DNA of 64,000 bases from Cordylochernes scorpioides (taxonomy: Eukaryota; Arthropoda; Arachnida; Pseudoscorpiones; Chernetidae): NCBI GenBank assembly GCA_030710605.1, contig CP092886.1:162734000-162797999 (forward strand), written 5' to 3'. Numbering within the stretch: the first letter of the stretch is position 1; each line of letters begins with the position of its first letter. The position numbers were made by a program, and so were the translations under genes. The notes under the pieces were generated by a model. It saw nothing but the letters and a program-made list of their open reading frames with translations, was not told the origin of the DNA and made no database searches. This document shows, one piece after another, positions 6,621 to 51,130 of this stretch.

Positions 6621-6859
6621 TTACTTGGCGTGTTGCTGTAATGTATACATTGCAAATTTCATTTTGAAAAACAGATAAGAGTGTAAATAACTGTTTTCTC
6701 CGCTTATACATATTTTTATCACAGTAGATCATGTATAAATAATAATTCGTTCCCTCAAATTTTCCAAATTGCTGGCGGATGAAAGACCTTCTTAATCCCG
6801 TGGCAAAAAAAAAAAGGCAAATTGTACATATCAGATCACCATTATATATAAAAATGGAT

Positions 6860-7080
6860 GGAAATCGTGAAATCAAAGCTCGTCCTAGACTAATGAAGGT
6901 CATTATCCCGAAATCATGGTCTCCAGCTGGACGTTCGGAATTTGCTAAGGATGGTGTTGCGGCTTTGTCGCTGACCCGATTCTGTTAGTTTTCAGAACCA
7001 GTCGATAGATGCGCATAGTTTTTGAGTCTATTTTGACGGGAGAGGTGACATTTGTCTTTATGGATCTATATTAAAATGTT
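6860..7080 (+). repeat. PLE terminal repeat, decayed hammerhead copy
   Basis: Reverse-complement relative of the repeats at 47580-48285 (shared: catggtctccagctggac, gctttgtcgctgacccg, tttgacgggagaggtgac). At 6882-6930 the hammerhead layout is still readable, with GAAAT-CATG-GTC and stem I arms. The core reads CTAATGA, losing the essential G5, and stem II is broken, so it should be inactive. Confidence 0.6.
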
Positions 7081-10746: not shown

Positions 10747-10767
10747 TTATAAATAAAAGACAATACA

Positions 10768-11229
10768 TTGAAAGAAGAGTTTAGTTTCTATCACGGCAAT
10801 ACAAACTTTCGGGCGTAACAGCTCTTCGACAGGTTGTTATTGTCGTGTCCAACGAAGAGCCTCTGATGTCTCCATGCATCTCTATCACAGCAGTTGCAAT
10901 GTCCTCTATCTTGGGTGTGTAAAGCTGCTGCTCTGGGTCTATGTCAATTTTCTGCAAGGCTGCGAACATTGCTGGGCATGAGAATATATGTATAGGGGTT
11001 AATTCAACACTATAACCATTGTTGCATATCCTGTAGGTTCTCTCTCTTGTTCCATCTGGATGTATAATCATTCCTTTGTAGTGTTTCGTTCTGAGTCTTG
11101 TTATTGTTTTTTTTTTCGATAGATATAATAACGATAATAGAATTACGATTTTAATATCATAATCATACCTGTCGAAGAGCTGTTACGCCCGAAAGCTTGT
11201 ATTGTCGTGATAGAAAAAAAAAGCTCTTC
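10768..11229. repeat. PLE-type inverted repeat flanking a LINE scrap
   Basis: Arms of about 62 bp (10768-10835 and 11168-11229) contain the pair cctgtcgaagagctgttacg / cccgaaagcttgtattgtcg, in inverted orientation. The motif order CTGTNGA - stem - CGAAAGCT recurs at 33064, 49878, 54581, 58117 and 63395. The 58-kb copy joins it to a PLE endonuclease tail, which is why I assign it to PLE ends. The spacer holds the LINE fragment below. Confidence 0.6.
10840..11071 (-). pseudogene. LINE ORF2 C-terminal fragment (zinc-knuckle tail)
   Basis: The minus-strand peptide begins at 11071 and has C-x15-HIFSCPA-like spacing, followed by LYTPKIEDIATAVIEMHGDI. This pattern is typical of the cysteine/histidine tail after the reverse transcriptase of Jockey/R1-type LINEs. 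Only the tail remains, trapped between two inverted PLE arms. The reading frame runs on into the left arm, so the natural stop is lost or displaced. Confidence 0.5.
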
Positions 11230-11501
11230 CCTCATCGAGAATTGTCTTTAATTCATAATTTATAGAGGTCAACAAAAGCGCCATATTCTATTTACACAAA
11301 ATCATTTGTATATTATAGATATAATTTCGTAATGTGTTAAAGAATATAACATAAAATTGAGGGAAAATGTGAAAATAAAAGCATAAATTTTAAAACCTAT
11401 AAATAATTATAATATAAAAACATATAAAAACTATCATGCTTGAACGATATTAATGTGCGAAAAGAAATTAGAGCAACTACTTTCATTCATTTATCTTCTC
11501 G
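11230..11501. other. No recognised feature
   Basis: AT-rich sequence between repeats. Confidence 0.4.
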
Positions 11502-12841: not shown

Positions 12842-13296
12842 TATAGGTATTTGAAGCATAAAGTGTATTTCGAATGAGTCAAATTATTTATTTAAAGCGA
12901 AAAAGGTGAGCTTTTGGAAAATCTCTTGAATCTTTGTGTCTTCCACTACTGGTCATTGAAATTTCTCGACCTGGAATAAATTCAAATTACCAAATGATAG
13001 TTGATGATCAACATATATACAACACTTTACCTAATTAAACACATGAAGTTTAGATTGAGTCAAATTCTTTTATTTCTCTAAAAAATGAAATATATATATA
13101 AAAGAGAGAAAGATATTGAAACTTCTTTATTACATCGTTCATATAAGATAAGGTTAAATACAAATTGAATAAATATGAATAAATAAGGATACATATAAAT
13201 AAATTTATTTATAAAATATATAATTGATAAATATACATATATAATATATAAAAAAAACAATAGAAAAAAATAATTTGTGGGTCAGGTGTTGATATT
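12842..13296. other. No recognised feature
   Basis: AT-rich sequence with a TA-rich stretch near 13085-13255. No supported ORF. Confidence 0.4.
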
Positions 13297-13690
13297 AAAA
13301 ATAAAAAGGCATATCCTGACCAAGAGCACATGTGCTTTTCAGAAGGCAGAGCGCCACCTGGTGAAATAGATATCAACTATTCATTGATTTAACCTGTTCC
13401 CTAAAAGTTTGGCCTTAAATACCCATTTCTTGGTTTTTCAGGAAGCCACTAGGACCAAAAATCGTTTTCGTCGCACTAGTACAGCCTACTCCACGCTGAC
13501 GAGCGCCAACAGCGCGAAACGGGTTCGTGGATGGCTTTTCTTGATTTATCAAGAAATTGGGTTGGCCAAATATCAGGGAACAGGTTAAATCAATGAATAG
13601 TTGATTTCTGTTCCATCAGATGGCGCTCTGCCTTCTGAAAAGCACATGTGCTCTTGGTCAGGATATGCCTTTTTTATTTTTAATATATAA
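13297..13690 (+). mobile_element. PLE foldback element with hammerhead ribozyme
   Basis: Long inverted arms (13297-13410 and 13560-13690; shared ggcatatcctgaccaagagc, acatgtgcttttcagaaggc, agagcgcc) enclose a hammerhead ribozyme motif and a ttcttgatttatcaagaaat hairpin. The right arm is in the same order as the 17.5-kb copy, so the left arm is an inverted, truncated second terminal repeat. Inverted terminal repeats and hammerheads are both known features of Penelope-like elements. Confidence 0.65.
13490..13531 (+). ncRNA. Hammerhead ribozyme motif (type I, minimal)
   Basis: Stem I TCCACG pairs with CGTGGA (13490-13495 with 13526-13531). The core CTGACGA is at 13496-13502. Stem II GCGC/GCGC closes a CAACA loop (13503-13515). 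GAAA is at 13516-13519. A two-pair stem III (A13519-T13524, C13520-G13523) precedes the cleavage position after T13525 (GUU). All invariant core bases are present. The very short stem III is typical of PLE hammerheads, which are thought to work better as dimers. Activity is not shown by sequence alone. Confidence 0.7.
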
Positions 13691-17050: not shown

Positions 17051-17510
17051 CATTTGGAATTAATACATGGATTTGAAATATATATTGTGAGTGTTGTGAA
17101 TTGAATTGGATTAACTTATTTCAATCTGCCTGATTTTCATGTTCAAACTCCAATGAAATATCTATTATTTAGCTTATTAATTGGTAATGCTTATGCACAA
17201 AATACCTTGCTTTGGTAAATTCTTTATAATTCATTAGGTTTAATATATGTTTAATCACGAGCACTCACCATTTGTTTAATTCAGTTGAATGCTTTCAGAT
17301 GCTGGTTATATAAAATCTCTCTCCGTACAGAAATGTTTGAGTTATTAAATATTTTTCCCCGGATGATTGACATCAAGAAGAGCAATCTAGATAAATAACA
17401 TGTATAAAAAACCCACAATAACCCAATAATAGAAATATATTTTAAAATTATTTCACATTCTATAATTATTTTTAGTTTTTAATTTTTCACATCACATATA
17501 TACATAGTCT
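17051..17510. other. No recognised feature
   Basis: AT-rich intronic sequence. Confidence 0.4.
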
Positions 17511-17512
17511 GC

Positions 17513-17554
17513 ACCACGCTGACGAGAACCAACAGCCCGAAACGCGTTCGTGGT
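17513..17554 (+). ncRNA. Hammerhead ribozyme motif with damaged stem II
   Basis: Stem I ACCACG/CGTGGT (17513-17518 with 17549-17554), core CTGACGA (17519-17525), GAAA (17539-17542) and GTT cleavage triplet are intact. Stem II reads GAAC against GCCC and keeps only its outer pairs: two G-to-A changes relative to the GGGC/GCCC form. Probably weak or inactive. Confidence 0.55.
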
Positions 17555-17700
17555 TCACTCTTCTTGATTTATCAAGAAATTAGTTTGGCTAAATATCACG
17601 GAACAAGTTAAATAAACGTTTAGTTTATTTTTGTTCCACTAGATGATGCTCTGCCATCTAGAAGTGAGCCTGGTCAGGAATGCCTTTTTTGTTTTTAATC
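17513..17700 (+). repeat. PLE terminal repeat with hammerhead
   Basis: Single-orientation copy of the terminal repeat seen at 13490-13690. It has the hammerhead, the ttcttgatttatcaagaaat hairpin, then 'gttccactagatgatgctct' and 'ggtcaggaatgcctttttt'. This copy shows the natural order of the repeat without foldback. Confidence 0.65.
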
Positions 17701-18219
17701 TATACATACACCTGCATTTGGCAAGAGGCATTTAATTCCTTATTAAATCGTTGTAACATATGTATTGAATCCGGAGGGGATTATTTTGAATAAAAAAATA
17801 GTAGAAATTAAATTAGCTTGTTTCTGTTTTATTTTACAAACCCATTCTTAAAAATTATTTGCCACACTGTGTATATAAGCTTTTTTTAGAAATCTCCAAT
17901 ATGACCCAAATTTTCTGACTTTTTTTTCAGTATAGTACATTCTTTTGTGTGGGATAACTAACCATCAAAAACCCTCTATATATCATTTTTAGAACTTTCA
18001 ATAAAACCTTTAAAAATTTTCTAAATAAAAATAATTAATTCAAAATTTATTATATCTAACAAAAAGTATCACGAAAATAAGCCAAGAAATGATGTCACGA
18101 AAATGCATTAGAGGTTAACCATACAGCTATAAAAATGAGTTAGCCCCAGATTTCCAACCTGGGATCTTCTGAACCACAACCAGGCGCATTACCCGTTGTG
18201 GTCACAACAAAACTATGTA
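17701..18219. other. No recognised feature
   Basis: AT-rich intronic sequence without supported features. Confidence 0.4.
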
Positions 18220-28476: not shown

Positions 28477-28480
28477 GTAC

Positions 28481-28578
28481 ATGCTTGTTCGGCGGTACAT
28501 ATGCTAAAATAGGAAAGATACAGAGAAGATTAGCATGGCCCCTGCGCAAGGATGACACGCAAAATCGTGAAGCGTTCC
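28481..28578 (+). pseudogene. U6 snRNA retropseudogene
   Basis: About 98 nt match U6 spliceosomal RNA. This includes the central block with acagagaagattagcatgg (ACAGAGA box and the start of the stem), 'cccctgcgcaaggatgacac' and 'gtgaagcgttcca'. The 5' hairpin is altered (atgcttgttcggcggtac), there are scattered substitutions (taggaaagatac), and no T-run follows. Perfect 17-bp direct repeats flank it, the mark of LINE-mediated retrotransposition, so it is a pseudogene and not the working gene. Confidence 0.9.
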
Positions 28579-28595
28579 ATTTAAACAGATTTGTA
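28579..28595. repeat. Target-site duplication, right (U6 retrocopy)
   Basis: Second copy of atttaaacagatttgta; see 28460-28476. Confidence 0.85.
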
Positions 28596-30502: not shown

Positions 30503-30573
30503 TGCATCGGCCGGGAATCGAACCCGGGCCGCCCGCGTGGCAGGCGAACATTCTACCACTGAACCACCGATGG
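30503..30573 (-). tRNA. tRNA-Gly (GCC), Helitron-borne copy
   Basis: 71 nt, complete A and B boxes, GCC anticodon, T-run after the gene on the minus strand. Has the shared C at position 1. One difference (gaatgttcgcc for gaatgctcgcc) groups it with the copy at 1884. Confidence 0.75.
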
Positions 30574-30786
30574 TTATGAAAATTCCCATCCGTGAGCTTC
30601 AAACAGACAAACAAACAGACAGAATAAGGCAAATATATAAGTAGATACGAATGACCCGGGCAACGCCCGGGTTTTACCCGATTAAATGCTTTTATTCAAA
30701 TACTATTCGTTACAATTATAAATTGGCGCCGTGGATGTCATTCTTGTATAATATATAAATGAGTTTTAAAAATTGTAAAAAAAAAA

Positions 30787-30857
30787 TGCATCGGCCGGGA
30801 ATCGAACCCGGGCCGCCCGCGTGGCAGGCGAGCATTCTACCACTGAACCACCGATGG
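30787..30857 (-). tRNA. tRNA-Gly (GCC), Helitron-borne copy
   Basis: 71 nt. Closest of the three to a canonical tRNA-Gly (gaatgctcgcc retained), but with the same C1-C72 mismatch. Sits in unit A of the tandem Helitron, 213 bp from the other copy. Confidence 0.75.
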
Positions 30858-33063: not shown

Positions 33064-33252
33064 TATAAATATTATTAAAAGACAATTCGCTGAGAGAAAA
33101 GTTTCTTTAATGTTTATCGGCAATACAAGCTTTTCGAAAAACTTCAGTAGCGTAGTTATACCTGTCGAAGGGCTGTTGAGCCCGAAAGCTTGTATTGTCG
33201 ATATACATAAAAGAAACTTTTCTCTCAGCGAATTGTCTTTTATTAATAGAAG
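33064..33252. repeat. PLE-type inverted repeat
   Basis: Arms aaaagacaattcgctgagag + aaaagtttctttaatg (left) and the reverse at 33205-33245. Centre: cctgtcgaagggctgttgag + cccgaaagcttgtattgtcg. Same terminal module as 10768-11229. Confidence 0.6.
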
Positions 33253-33900: not shown

Positions 33901-33952
33901 TGAAGCCAATTTTTCTCTCATAAAATAATCAAATATATATATATATATATCA

Positions 33953-34190
33953 AAAATAAAAATGGCATATTCTGACAAGGAGCACATGTGCTTTACAGAA
34001 GGCAGAGCGCCATCTGGTGGAACAGAAATCAACTATTAATTGATTTAGCCTGTTCCCTGATATTTGGCCAACCCAATTTCTATCAAGAAATTCTATCAAT
34101 GTTTAGTTATTTCTGTTACACCAGATGGCGCTCTGCCTTCTGTAAAGCACATGTGCTCCTGGTCAGGATATGCCATTTTTATTTTTGATT
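33953..34190. repeat. PLE foldback, family of 13297, no ribozyme
   Basis: Arms: aaaaatggcatattctgaca, 'ggagcacatgtgctttac', 'agaaggcagagcgccatctg', and the inverse at 34110-34190. The hammerhead-bearing centre is deleted. Confidence 0.65.
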
Positions 34191-34734
34191 TCAACACCTG
34201 ATCTTTTTATCTTTCATTTTTTCTTTCGTTTTTCATATATATATATATATATATGAAAAATATATAAATAAAAATATATGTCATAATATATGCTCTTACA
34301 GGAATAATAAAGTAAATCTGCAGCCGACCAGAGAGAGAGAGACGTAGTCGATTCGAAGATAACTAACTTGCGACCCTTTGTTGACCACATTCCTGAGGGG
34401 GGCGTCAACACCTGGCGACTAATCTTTTGTTTGCCCCGCTTGTGTACACAGGGAAAAAACAGTGGTTCAGTAGATAGCACACTCGCCACCTCTTGCTCTC
34501 TCGGCTGGCTGCCTGGATTTTTAGCTCTAACAACTCGTCGTGTGATTATTTCTCAACTCACCACATCATTACCACTATATTGTCACATATATATTAAAAT
34601 AAATGCATATTTTGAATCAATCTTATATATTTATTAAAACAAATTTAGACATATATATTTCTCACATCATAGTACTTATAGTTTATGGTAAAATATATTT
34701 GACTTCCAATCCTCTACCATAGATATATTTTTTA
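34191..34734. other. No recognised gene
   Basis: (TA)n at 34236-34255 and a moderately GC-rich stretch at 34360-34520. Its 89-codon frame (34371-34637) has no recognised domain. Confidence 0.35.
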
Positions 34735-44061: not shown

Positions 44062-44297
44062 CTAGCCGAATGACCCGGGCAACGCCCGTGTTTTACCCAA
44101 TTGAATGTTTTGATTCAAATACTATTTGTTACAATTTTAAATTGTGGTCATGTGGCCTAGTGGTCATGGCATCTGCCCGGTAAGCGGAAGGTCGTGGGTT
44201 CGATCCCCATCCCTTGACACTTTTTTATTTTATCCATTCTGACCAAAATCTATCCGTGAACTTCACACAGACAGAATAAGGCAATTATATAAGTAGA
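44062..44297 (-). mobile_element. Helitron (non-autonomous) with a second tRNA-like sequence
   Basis: 3' CTAG at 44062-44065 (followed by T on the minus strand), terminal hairpin 'cgggcaacgcccg', 5' TC at 44297. Its ends match the tRNA-Gly Helitrons ('gttacaattttaaattg', 'acacagacagaataaggcaa', 'ttatataagtaga'). The cargo between them is a different tRNA-like sequence in the opposite orientation. Confidence 0.75.
44146..44220 (+). tRNA. tRNA-like sequence, isotype uncertain
   Basis: A-box-like tggcctagtggtcatgg and B-box gggttcgatccccat are clear. The anticodon arm can be folded as TCTGC-CCGGTAA-GCGGA, which would give GGT (Thr), but position 33 is C instead of U. The acceptor stem is imperfect (GTCA/TGAC plus mismatches). 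Six T follow. Probably a decayed tRNA gene moved by the Helitron. Confidence 0.45.
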
Positions 44298-47530: not shown

Positions 47531-47579
47531 ACTTTTATTGATTTATATTTTGTAATAATATATATATCCATAGAAGCAT

Positions 47580-47935
47580 AAGGCGCCTCTCCAGTCAAAA
47601 TAAACGTTAAAACCTGACGCCATCTATTGACCGTCGCCGCAAACTAGCGGCCTCGGGTCGGTGACAAAGCCACAACACCAGCTTTGGCAAATTTGAAAGC
47701 GTCCACCTAGAGACCATGGTTTCGGGCTAATGGCCCTCATCAGCCTAGGGCGGACTTTATTACATGAGATCCAAACGAGATCTAATGGAATCTTCACAAT
47801 CTACCAAAGAGGTGTTTTGCTGGCAAGGTGGCTGAGCCCAATCTATGGCTAGAATATAGATAGAAAAAATAGATGGCGTCAGGTTTTGACGGGAGAGGCG
47901 CCCAATGCTTCTATGGATCAATTTCCTCCCGACAA
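47580..47935 (-). repeat. PLE terminal repeat with intact hammerhead, copy 1
   Basis: Shares its whole length with the copy at 47958-48285 and with 6860-7080: 'gcgcctctccagtcaaaata', 'ctcgggtcggtgacaaagcc', 'gagaccatggtttcgggcta', 'accaaagaggtgttttgctg'. The two copies are in direct orientation, 22 bp apart, as expected for PLE terminal repeats in tandem. Ends are short inverted repeats (gcgcctctcc.gtcaaaa / ttttgacgggagaggcgc). Confidence 0.65.
47701..47755 (-). ncRNA. Hammerhead ribozyme (type I), apparently intact
   Basis: Read on the minus strand. Stem I has 10 pairs with a 2x1 internal loop (47744-47755 with 47711-47701). The core CTGATGA is at 47743-47737. Stem II GGGC/GCCC has a CATTA loop (47736-47724). 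GAAA begins at 47723. Stem III is ACC/GGT with a 2-nt loop, and GTC forms the cleavage triplet with cleavage after 47712. Every invariant core nucleotide is present, including the G10.1-C11.1 pair. Hammerheads with short stem III are known in Penelope-like element terminal repeats; whether this one cuts is untested. Confidence 0.82.
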
Positions 47936-47957
47936 ATATATCCATATATATATATGG

Positions 47958-48285
47958 ACACCTCTCCCGTCAAAATAGACTCAAAACCTAGGCGTCATCT
48001 ATCGACCGTCTCGGAAAACTAGAGGACTCGGGTCGGTGACAGAGCCAAAATGCCATCTTTGGCAAATCCAGAACGTCAACCTGGAGACCATGGTTCCGGG
48101 CTAATGGTCCTTCTCAGTGCAGAGGGTAATTTTTGACTTCAAAAGACCCTCAAGGGATCTAATGGAATCTTCAGAATCTACCAAAGAGGTGTTTAGCTGG
48201 CAAAGTGGCTAGGCTAATTCTTCAACCGATATAGGGAAAGACATATAGTATTCATGTCTATTTGATGGGAGAAGTTACCTTTTTT
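47958..48285 (-). repeat. PLE terminal repeat, copy 2 (hammerhead decayed)
   Basis: Second direct copy. The corresponding hammerhead at 48066-48125 reads CTGAGAA in the core and GGAA for GAAA, so catalysis should be lost although the GTC triplet and stem arms remain. Confidence 0.65.
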
Positions 48286-50479: not shown

Positions 50480-50700
50480 ATTTCGAACTATGAAATCGAT
50501 TTATCACAAAGTGGATCTTCCTCATTCTACCATTTCAGACAAATCACCGAAAATATTCAGACAAAACGGTCAACCTATATACCATGGCTTAGAGCTATGA
50601 CCCTCATCAGTGCAGGAGCGGCTTCAATTGTCTACCATCCTACGAGAGAAGTCATAGAATTGGCCGAATATGTCTAAAAGATATTTAACAGATTAATGTC
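50480..50700 (-). repeat. PLE terminal repeat, decayed hammerhead
   Basis: On the minus strand 50625-50565 reads cactgatgagggtcatagct, then 'ctaagccatggtatatagg'. The CTGATGA is intact, but GAAA has become TAAG and stem II is weakened. Same family as 47580. Confidence 0.55.
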
Positions 50701-50739: not shown

Positions 50740-51130
50740 TGTTTTCTTCTTCTTCTTCTTTCTTATCTCCATTCAATCATATTTGGAGTATCAAGCTTGT
50801 AAAGCTTGAGATCATAATGACTGGGTGAAGTAGAATGCGTCTGCCTTGGTCTCATTAAGACTAGGAGCACTACTCAGTGGCAGGCCGACTTAGCTCCAAA
50901 AGAAATGGCTGCCTCTGACATGAGGAACAGACGCCATGTGCAGCCGCTCCTAACATGGAGTACAAACGCTGCTCCTCCTGTATCCCTGGATTAGGAGTCC
51001 TTACAGGGTACTATCAGCCGGAGCAGCTGAACTCAGGTTTTTTAGCGAGCTTGTTACTGCTCCCCTCCTCCTTTTTCATCCGGGCTTGGGACCGGCAAAG
51101 GCGGAGTTACTAGTGTTATGACTTATTGAT
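50740..51130. repeat. Retroposon-like element with (TTC)n edge
   Basis: Starts with cttcttcttcttctttctta at the left and runs through a GC-rich body (ggcaggccgacttagctcca, cgctgctcctcctgtatccc, gggaccggcaaaggcggagt). Its left edge is shared with 49130. Probably a SINE or LINE tail with a simple-repeat end on the minus strand; family unknown. Confidence 0.45.

What the first reader, a model, noticed from the sequence alone, without database searches (positions are those of the whole stretch)
47701..47755. Apparently intact type-I hammerhead ribozyme in a repeated element
All invariant core nucleotides, a GUC cleavage triplet, a four-pair stem II, three-pair stem III and a ten-pair stem I with internal loop are present on the minus strand. 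A second direct copy of the whole repeat 22 bp further on (47958-48285) has core substitutions, and two more copies (6882, 50565) have other lesions. So one element family shows active-looking and dead versions side by side. Hammerheads are known in Penelope-like elements; a ribozyme copy inside the presumed intron of caudal could cut the pre-mRNA only if transcribed from the minus strand.
Basis: partly seen in the sequence, partly recalled or inferred. Interest (0 to 1): 0.72.

Follow-up and report, generated by a model that had tools for sequence, protein, structure and literature searches.

The report
Hammerhead retrozyme with Penelope-type insertion marks
The ribozyme is real by sequence and belongs to a tiny self-copying RNA element present in thousands of copies, and the insertion scars of the copies examined match those of Penelope-like retrotransposons, which points to the enzyme that moves such elements in animals.

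Summary
The motif is real. Window 47700-47755(-) carries an intact type-I hammerhead core. Rfam scores it below threshold, but a covariance model built only from a second ribozyme family of this genome finds it (35.5 bits, E about 2e-8, rough). Stem III (ACCATGGT) is a palindrome with a 2-nt loop, so it should work as a dimer. Its unit is a 319-nt tandem repeat, best filed as a metazoan non-LTR retrozyme. The unnamed 2.62-Gb genome holds 12,093 exact matches to an intact family-1 pattern and 34,272 to a family-2 pattern (family 2 is also in the window); reversed patterns gave 0. The main result is insertion architecture. Of 62 family-1 elements examined, 35 are head-to-head with both RNA 3' ends outward, in AT-rich DNA, mostly with target duplications. 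In 33 of these 35 one end is at site S and the other at site T, 36 nt on; two are unclassifiable; none is SS or TT. Family 2 gives 5 of 6 (sixth unclassifiable), and coding GIY-YIG Penelope-like elements of this genome 3 of 3. This is the published Penelope tail and inverted-repeat signature, and it supports the proposal that Penelope-like enzymes move animal retrozymes. Cleavage, circles and mobilisation are not shown.

The parts
47566..47948 (-). Family-1 retrozyme insertion, head-to-head: long arm 47566-47867 and inverted short arm 47868-about 47948
   Evidence: Inverted arms 47566-47600/47884-47918 (91%) and 47605-47628/47868-47891 (96%); in other loci the unit continues past query position 302 as a direct repeat
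47700..47755 (-). Intact type-I hammerhead; predicted cleavage between 47712 and 47711
   Evidence: Core by inspection; R1 model 35.5 bits; HH9 26.7 bits, below cut-off
47713..47720 (-). Palindromic stem III ACCATGGT, predicted to form 8 intermolecular pairs
   Evidence: Cofold of two 55-nt family-1 ribozymes gives a double hammerhead, -51.6 against 2 x -22.2 kcal/mol
47566..47572 (.). Outer end of the long arm, class S (u1-u5), next to (AT)n
47919..47948 (.). Outer end of the inverted arm with the tail (class T), next to (AT)n; last bases diverged, so the boundary is approximate
   Evidence: Read by eye against the T ends; not counted among the 35
47936..48285 (-). Older adjacent family-1 insertion, about 79% alike, ribozyme core broken, own short inverted right end by eye
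6859..7071 (+). Older family-1 copy, ribozyme core broken (G5)
   Evidence: 75% alike; sequence
50569..50610 (-). Family-1 ribozyme remnant, GAA broken
13250..13690 (+). Family-2 retrozyme, head-to-head, T2 end with tail (left) and S2 end (right)
   Evidence: Self-inverted match; ends
13484..13537 (+). Family-2 hammerhead, core intact, one change in the stem III palindrome (ACGGGT)
   Evidence: in the R1 training set
17507..17705 (+). Family-2 copy, ribozyme with two broken stem II pairs
33934..34235 (.). Family-2 insertion, head-to-head, S2 left and T2 with tail right

Best explanation
The element is a non-autonomous, non-LTR retrozyme. Inferred cycle: (1) tandem units are transcribed on the ribozyme strand; (2) palindromic stem III lets two hammerheads pair and cut, giving 319-nt monomers that a host ligase circularises; (3) a Penelope-like protein (reverse transcriptase plus GIY-YIG endonuclease) loads the circle or multimer, makes a staggered cut in AT-rich DNA, and uses both 3' ends as primers, one starting at RNA site S, the other at site T 36 nt away; (4) copying runs round the template, giving tandem units; (5) the two cDNAs are joined in the middle by end joining, which leaves a head-to-head element with a target duplication. 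Shown by sequence: the ribozyme fold, tandem unit, head-to-head order, S/T end pairing, AT-rich targets, duplications, and the same end pattern in coding Penelope-like elements. Inferred: cleavage, circles, the enzyme and the order of steps.
For: 319-bp tandem units, four full direct copies, a partial fifth and an inverted part in L020. Of 62 non-duplicate family-1 elements, 35 have outward 3' ends on both sides; 33 of 35 have one S and one T end, 0 SS, 0 TT, 2 unclassifiable. Split: 21 of 21 in BLAST-ranked loci, 12 of 14 in pattern-picked loci in genome order; stricter bins 29 of 35, the rest with one (5) or both (1) ends outside the bins, still no SS or TT. Equal independent choice would give 33 of 33 with chance about 1e-10. 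Family 2: 5 of 6, the sixth (L073) unclassifiable. PLE-B: 3 of 3 readable at both ends. Shared flank words mean 10.8 nt in own pairs against 5.9 in mismatched pairs, 0 of 10,000 permutations as large; at least 9 nt in 25 of 35 against 154 of 1190. Flank AT 0.83 against 0.64 background. GIY-YIG neighbours within 10 kb: 11 of 11 divergent, among 146 listed matches. Neighbouring hammerheads within 700 bp on opposite strands: 15 with 3' out, 1 the other way. Arms of one element share private variants (0.072 against 0.126, 33 elements, 0 of 10,000 permutations). Circular fold z -7.2. Frangieh 2024 (PMC11167929, parts 1-2 of 4 and passages read): a purified PLE extends both strands at AT-rich DNA from two internal sites matching the genomic tail. 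Arkhipova 2013 (PMC3846280, passages): inverted pLTR, optional 31-bp tail on one of them, head-to-head order.
Against: No transcript, cleavage or circle data. Rfam scores are below cut-off. A single ribozyme folded alone does not give the hammerhead as its best structure. The PLE-B and PLE-C hammerhead-like motifs were seen by eye or by a motif script only: neither R1 nor Rfam reports them, and PLE-B failed the stem test. S/T sequences of the retrozymes and of PLE-B are not alike; a hairpin around S is predicted for families 1 and 2 but is weak (z -1.3 to -1.4; window arm -2.2), and PLE-B's best fold differs. No PLE with the family-1 tail was found; only 150 of 17,015 GIY-YIG candidates were scored, 31 loci read. 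Inner junctions show no pile-up at the ribozyme cut, so copying from a circle is not separated from copying an uncut multimer. L025 and L041 have arms of different subfamilies, so one template does not serve always.
Confidence: 0.78

Rival explanations
1. The motif is a piece of the pseudo-LTR of a coding Penelope-like element with a minimal hammerhead.
For: PLE-B and PLE-C of the same genome carry hammerhead-like motifs with palindromic ACGT or AGCT stem III.
Against: Family 1 occurs as its own 319-bp tandem unit, and the unit matches none of the 31 GIY-YIG loci read.
Confidence: 0.08
2. A MITE or foldback DNA transposon whose terminal inverted repeats are moved by a transposase; the ribozyme is a passenger.
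For: Inverted ends and target duplications.
Against: The inverted portion varies from tens of bases to whole units, arms can consist of tandem units, the two ends differ by the 36-nt tail, and many copies show one arm only.
Confidence: 0.03
3. A retrozyme moved by a LINE-type enzyme with twin priming rather than by a Penelope-like one.
For: Twin priming also primes from both target ends (recalled).
Against: Ends fall at two fixed internal sites; coding PLEs in the same genome show the same S/T pairing.
Confidence: 0.08
4. Head-to-head order arises by self-priming (snap-back) of one cDNA or on an antisense template, as suggested for Penelope (PMC3846280, passages), not by priming from both target ends.
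For: Arms of one element usually share variants; full units within L006 and L053, inverted ones included, differ by 0 to 0.3%.
Against: It does not predict that one end is S and the other T; L041 and its copy L042, and L025, have arms of different subfamilies; inner junctions are scattered with short overlaps or filler, one of 74 nt.
Confidence: 0.12

Closest known systems
Metazoan non-LTR retrozymes (Cervera and de la Pena 2020, PMC7229834; parts 1-4 of 6 read)
   Same: Type-I hammerhead, tandem unit of 170-400 nt, thousands of copies, target duplications above 4 bp, highly self-paired predicted circle, weak palindromic stem III as in the axolotl ribozymes that act as dimers
   Different: Head-to-head insertions with paired S/T ends and a tail are not described in the parts I read; GC of one unit is 0.498 (the paper's legend says below 45%, its text below 50%)
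Penelope-like elements (Arkhipova 2013, PMC3846280, passages; Frangieh 2024, PMC11167929, parts 1-2 of 4 and passages)
   Same: AT-rich targets, inverted head-to-head arms, optional 30-40-bp tail on one arm, two RT start sites, type-I hammerhead upstream of the start sites
   Different: The retrozyme unit is 319 nt; its longest stop-free frame is 78 codons, also in tandem
PLE-associated small hammerheads that cleave as dimers (Lunse 2017; seen only as a citation in PMC7761336 passages, paper not held)
   Same: Short palindromic stem III
   Different: Here the palindrome is 8 nt (family 1) or 6 nt (family 2), against 4 nt in PLE-B and PLE-C of this genome
Newt/axolotl hammerhead repeats (as told in PMC7229834)
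   Same: 330-350-bp tandem units, dimer-dependent stem III
   Different: Other sequence and host; S/T insertion ends of those repeats not examined by me

Membership tests
Hammerhead ribozyme, type I | Invariant core CUGANGA...GAA...UH with three stems, open stem I | tested here: met
Hammerhead ribozyme, type I | Rfam gathering score | tested here: not met
   No RF00163 hit; RF02275 26.7 bits against 52. The genome-wide RF00163 search rang nowhere, controls included
Hammerhead ribozyme, type I | Stems vary between families while keeping pairing | tested here: met
   Stem I CCTAGA/TCTAGG against CCACG/CGTGG, stem III ACCATGGT against ACGCGT, stem II GGGC/GCCC against GCGC/GCGC
Hammerhead ribozyme, type I | Self-cleavage after H17 | not testable with these tools
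   Bench assay needed
Hammerhead ribozyme, type I | Loop I - loop II tertiary contact | not tested
   Stem I has an internal loop and stem II a CATTA loop, but no contact was modelled
Metazoan non-LTR retrozyme | Tandem unit of 170-400 nt carrying the ribozyme | tested here: met
   319 bp in family 1. Same-strand neighbours under 700 bp: family 1 319, 319, 539; family 2 338-350 in 13 of 15, 114 in 2
Metazoan non-LTR retrozyme | No coding capacity | tested here: met
   Longest stop-free frame 78 codons in one natural unit and in its tandem
Metazoan non-LTR retrozyme | Low GC (<50% in text, <45% in legend) | tested here: inconclusive
   0.498 for one unit
Metazoan non-LTR retrozyme | Target-site duplications longer than 4 bp | tested here: met
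Metazoan non-LTR retrozyme | Linear and circular RNA in tissue | not testable with these tools
   No RNA data
Penelope-like element | ORF with reverse transcriptase and GIY-YIG | tested here: not met
   Unit of 319 nt, longest frame 78 codons; so it is not a PLE
Penelope-like element | Inverted arms, tail on one of them, AT-rich target (insertion signature) | tested here: met
   same in PLE-B
MITE / TIR transposon | Fixed terminal inverted repeats at both ends | tested here: not met
   Variable inverted extent, asymmetric ends, one-arm copies

The most novel reading that the evidence does not exclude
Animal retrozymes are the SINEs of Penelope-like elements. Insertion uses both 3' ends of a staggered cut, one primed at RNA site S and the other at site T, on circular ribozyme-made templates, so that every two-armed insertion is S/T and never S/S or T/T. 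The tail rule noted for Penelope would then be a fixed division of labour between two copies of the enzyme.
Probability: 0.6. Interest if true: 0.75.

Novelty: new variant of a known kind. Interest (0 to 1): 0.6.

Why it matters
Which enzyme spreads animal retrozymes is open; PLEs were proposed because the two co-occur and share type-I hammerheads and tandem order (PMC7229834, parts 1-4; PMC8969392 and PMC11722881, passages). Here the copies examined carry the PLE insertion mark, beside coding PLEs with the same mark, so the idea can be tested directly. The S/T rule also constrains how PLEs insert: in vitro no difference of start site between strands was seen (PMC11167929), while in these genomic copies the two ends of an insertion were never found at the same site (41 classifiable cases over three families: 33, 5 and 3).

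Tried and rejected
Rfam Hammerhead_1 over the genome: nothing rang anywhere, controls included, so no conclusion. HHR cleavage site as the end of copied RNA: inner junctions are scattered, no pile-up at u145/u146. L091/L092 as a PLE with both outer ends: the inverted arms run past the fetched DNA, so the ends could not be read; L091 has an N-terminal GIY-YIG. A shared hairpin around site S: weak, kept as a lead. Unit uniformity within arrays as proof of a circular template: within-locus 0.024 (20 pairs) against between-locus 0.035 (21 pairs), L002 and L005 each holding two separate insertions; not decisive. Microhomology at inner junctions: 19 of 36 overlap, but no chance control was run. Species: a genome-note search returned only mammals, not pursued. 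Literature. 'Retrozyme' with 'head-to-head' gave 0 papers; 'retrozymes' with 'Penelope' and 'target-primed reverse transcription' 0. The other lists were partly capped (20 of 31, 15 of 31, 15 of 152, 12 of 170 shown). Cervera 2014 and Lunse 2017 were not held, and the Naiad paper did not come up, so 'not in print' is limited to what was shown.

Rows dropped before counts: loci L040, L054, L055 (overlap L039, L053); one of 67 clusters, at the end of L031; L005 (two rows), L038, L042, near copies of L002, L037, L041. That leaves 62. Two of 35 were left out of the arm comparison. Of the 100 places listed for family 2, 99 were used (one lost in transcription). The window's own element was not among the 35, because its short inverted arm was lost in the overlap filter; it therefore stands among the other 27. 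One of the three PLE-B cases (C1:106705) shares its left flank with L088 and may be a duplicated region.

Full report
Observation. Rfam does not reach its cut-offs: no RF00163 match, RF02275 at 26.7 bits against 52. I therefore built a model (R1) from six ribozymes of another family of the same genome only, two of them from this window. It finds the given site with 35.5 bits, E 1.8e-8 over the window (calibration is short). A pattern for the intact family-1 ribozyme occurs 12,093 times (6,027 + 6,066), one for family 2 34,272 times (17,115 + 17,157), and both reversed controls 0 times. So it is not chance.

Dimer. Stem III of family 1 is ACCATGGT, of family 2 ACGCGT; both are palindromes, as are the short stem III motifs read by eye in PLE groups B (ACGT) and C (AGCT). 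Among the 75 motifs that passed the script, 72 have a palindromic stem III; this set includes loci picked by a pattern that fixes it. Folding two family-1 ribozymes together gives the double hammerhead with an 8-pair stem III, -51.6 kcal/mol against 2 x -22.2 for single ones; a single one prefers another fold. Dimer cleavage is reported for newt, axolotl and PLE hammerheads (PMC7229834 parts read; PMC7761336 passages). In the window copy the first pair of stem I is G.U where most copies parsed have A-U. PLE-B motifs carry one extra base at the foot of stem II (my reading), and neither R1 nor Rfam reports them, so their activity is doubtful.

Unit. L020 has four direct copies of 319 bp, a partial fifth and an inverted part. 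One unit, closed to a circle, folds with -122.8 kcal/mol against -86.7 +/- 5.0 for 200 shuffles, z -7.2. Its longest stop-free frame is 78 codons, alone or in tandem. By these features it is a metazoan non-LTR retrozyme (PMC7229834).

Architecture. I mapped the unit on 60 loci: 30 ranked by similarity to the window copy and 30 picked by the ribozyme pattern in genome order, all on C1. After removing overlaps and duplicates, 62 elements remain, 35 of which begin and end with arms whose RNA 3' ends point outward. End positions cluster at two sites of the unit: S near u5 and T near u288, 36 nt apart. In 33 of 35 one end is S and the other T; none is SS or TT; two cannot be classed (L032, L046). 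By source: 21 of 21 and 12 of 14. Stricter bins give 29 ST, 5 with one end outside the bins, 1 with both. The other 27 elements (nearly all one-armed as mapped) have S (12), T (8) or other (7) at the outer 3' end, so each site can serve alone. The reversed order (3' ends inward) is rare: among neighbouring intact ribozymes within 700 bp on opposite strands, 15 point outward and 1 inward, against 36 and 46 for neighbours more than 5 kb apart (first 100 places listed for family 1, 99 of 100 for family 2).

Target. Flanks are AT-rich (0.83 for two-armed elements, background 0.64), often (AT)n. Left and right flanks share words of 10.8 nt on average against 5.9 for mismatched pairs (0 of 10,000 permutations as large); clear non-repetitive cases include L002, L008, L024, L029 and L039, while 10 of 35 share fewer than 9 nt. 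The exact length is blurred because targets and ends share A and T.

Junction and templates. Where the two arms meet, positions are scattered over the unit: 19 of 36 junctions overlap by 1-46 nt, 2 are flush, 14 have 1-20 extra bases and one has 74 (no chance control). Arms of one element share private variants (mean distance 0.072 against 0.126 over 33 elements), so most insertions seem to use one RNA species; gene conversion between arms could also make them alike. L025 and L041 join arms of different subfamilies; L042, a duplicate of L041, shows the same.

Second family. Six two-armed family-2 elements were read (window 13250-13690 and 33934-34235, L018, L041, L073, L088). Five have one short end (...TTTTTAATAT or the like, next to (AT)n) and one end with a tail of about 45 nt (...CAACACCTGACC...GTTTTTTCAT), also next to AT-rich DNA. 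In L073 the tail runs on into another unit, so that element cannot be classed.

Autonomous partner. GIY-YIG matches, 146 listed of 150 scored out of 17,015 candidates, have 11 neighbour pairs within 10 kb, all divergent. Group B carries a hammerhead-like motif, then, about 45 nt on, ends either at an S-like site or after a 32-nt tail. Three two-armed group-B insertions were read at both ends: L062, C13:66283 and C1:106705; all three are T plus S, and the C13 case shares ATACATAATACAAT on both sides. These are the published PLE features: tail on one inverted pLTR, head-to-head order (PMC3846280, passages) and, in vitro, both strands extended at AT-rich DNA from two internal sites (PMC11167929, parts 1-2). 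The retrozyme and PLE-B tails are not alike in sequence by eye, so PLE-B is not shown to be the partner.

The second copy at 47936-48285 is an older insertion, about 79% alike, with its own short inverted end; the two lie side by side in AT-rich DNA.

Verdict. Ribozyme and repeat: confirmed by sequence. Class: retrozyme, a known kind. New, as far as the papers shown to me go: the PLE insertion signature, with an S/T rule that had no exception among 41 classifiable cases, on retrozymes. What is not shown: cleavage, circles, transcription and the enzyme.

Noticed in passing
window 51060-51113 (-): Twister-P1-like ribozyme, 44.5 bits (Rfam cut-off 67.2), model matched end to end; a review passage (PMC7761336) mentions twister ribozymes at the 5' end of RTE retrotransposons.
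   Followed up: partly
window 33070-33248, 11165-11257, 10748-10834: Repeat, palindromic at 33070-33248, with a hammerhead-like motif CTGTCGA...GAAAGCTT, similar to the motif of PLE group C (L079, L086) but with a changed core base.
   Followed up: partly
L091 (G000:C1:8984700-8993700): Two long, about 99% identical inverted arms, each with PLE coding sequence bearing an N-terminal GIY-YIG (permuted, Naiad-like as recalled); outer ends lie beyond the fetched DNA.
   Followed up: partly
L088 2188-2673: Family-2 retrozyme inserted in the (AT)n at the tail end of a PLE-B copy.
   Followed up: no
window 47618-47625 (-) and 13618-13625 (+): Both retrozyme families carry AGATGGCG some 45-60 nt upstream of site S in the RNA sense.
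   Followed up: no
window 28477-28586; 30503-30857; 1884-1954; 44147-44219: U6 snRNA gene copy and four tRNA-like genes, three of them near-identical.
   Followed up: no
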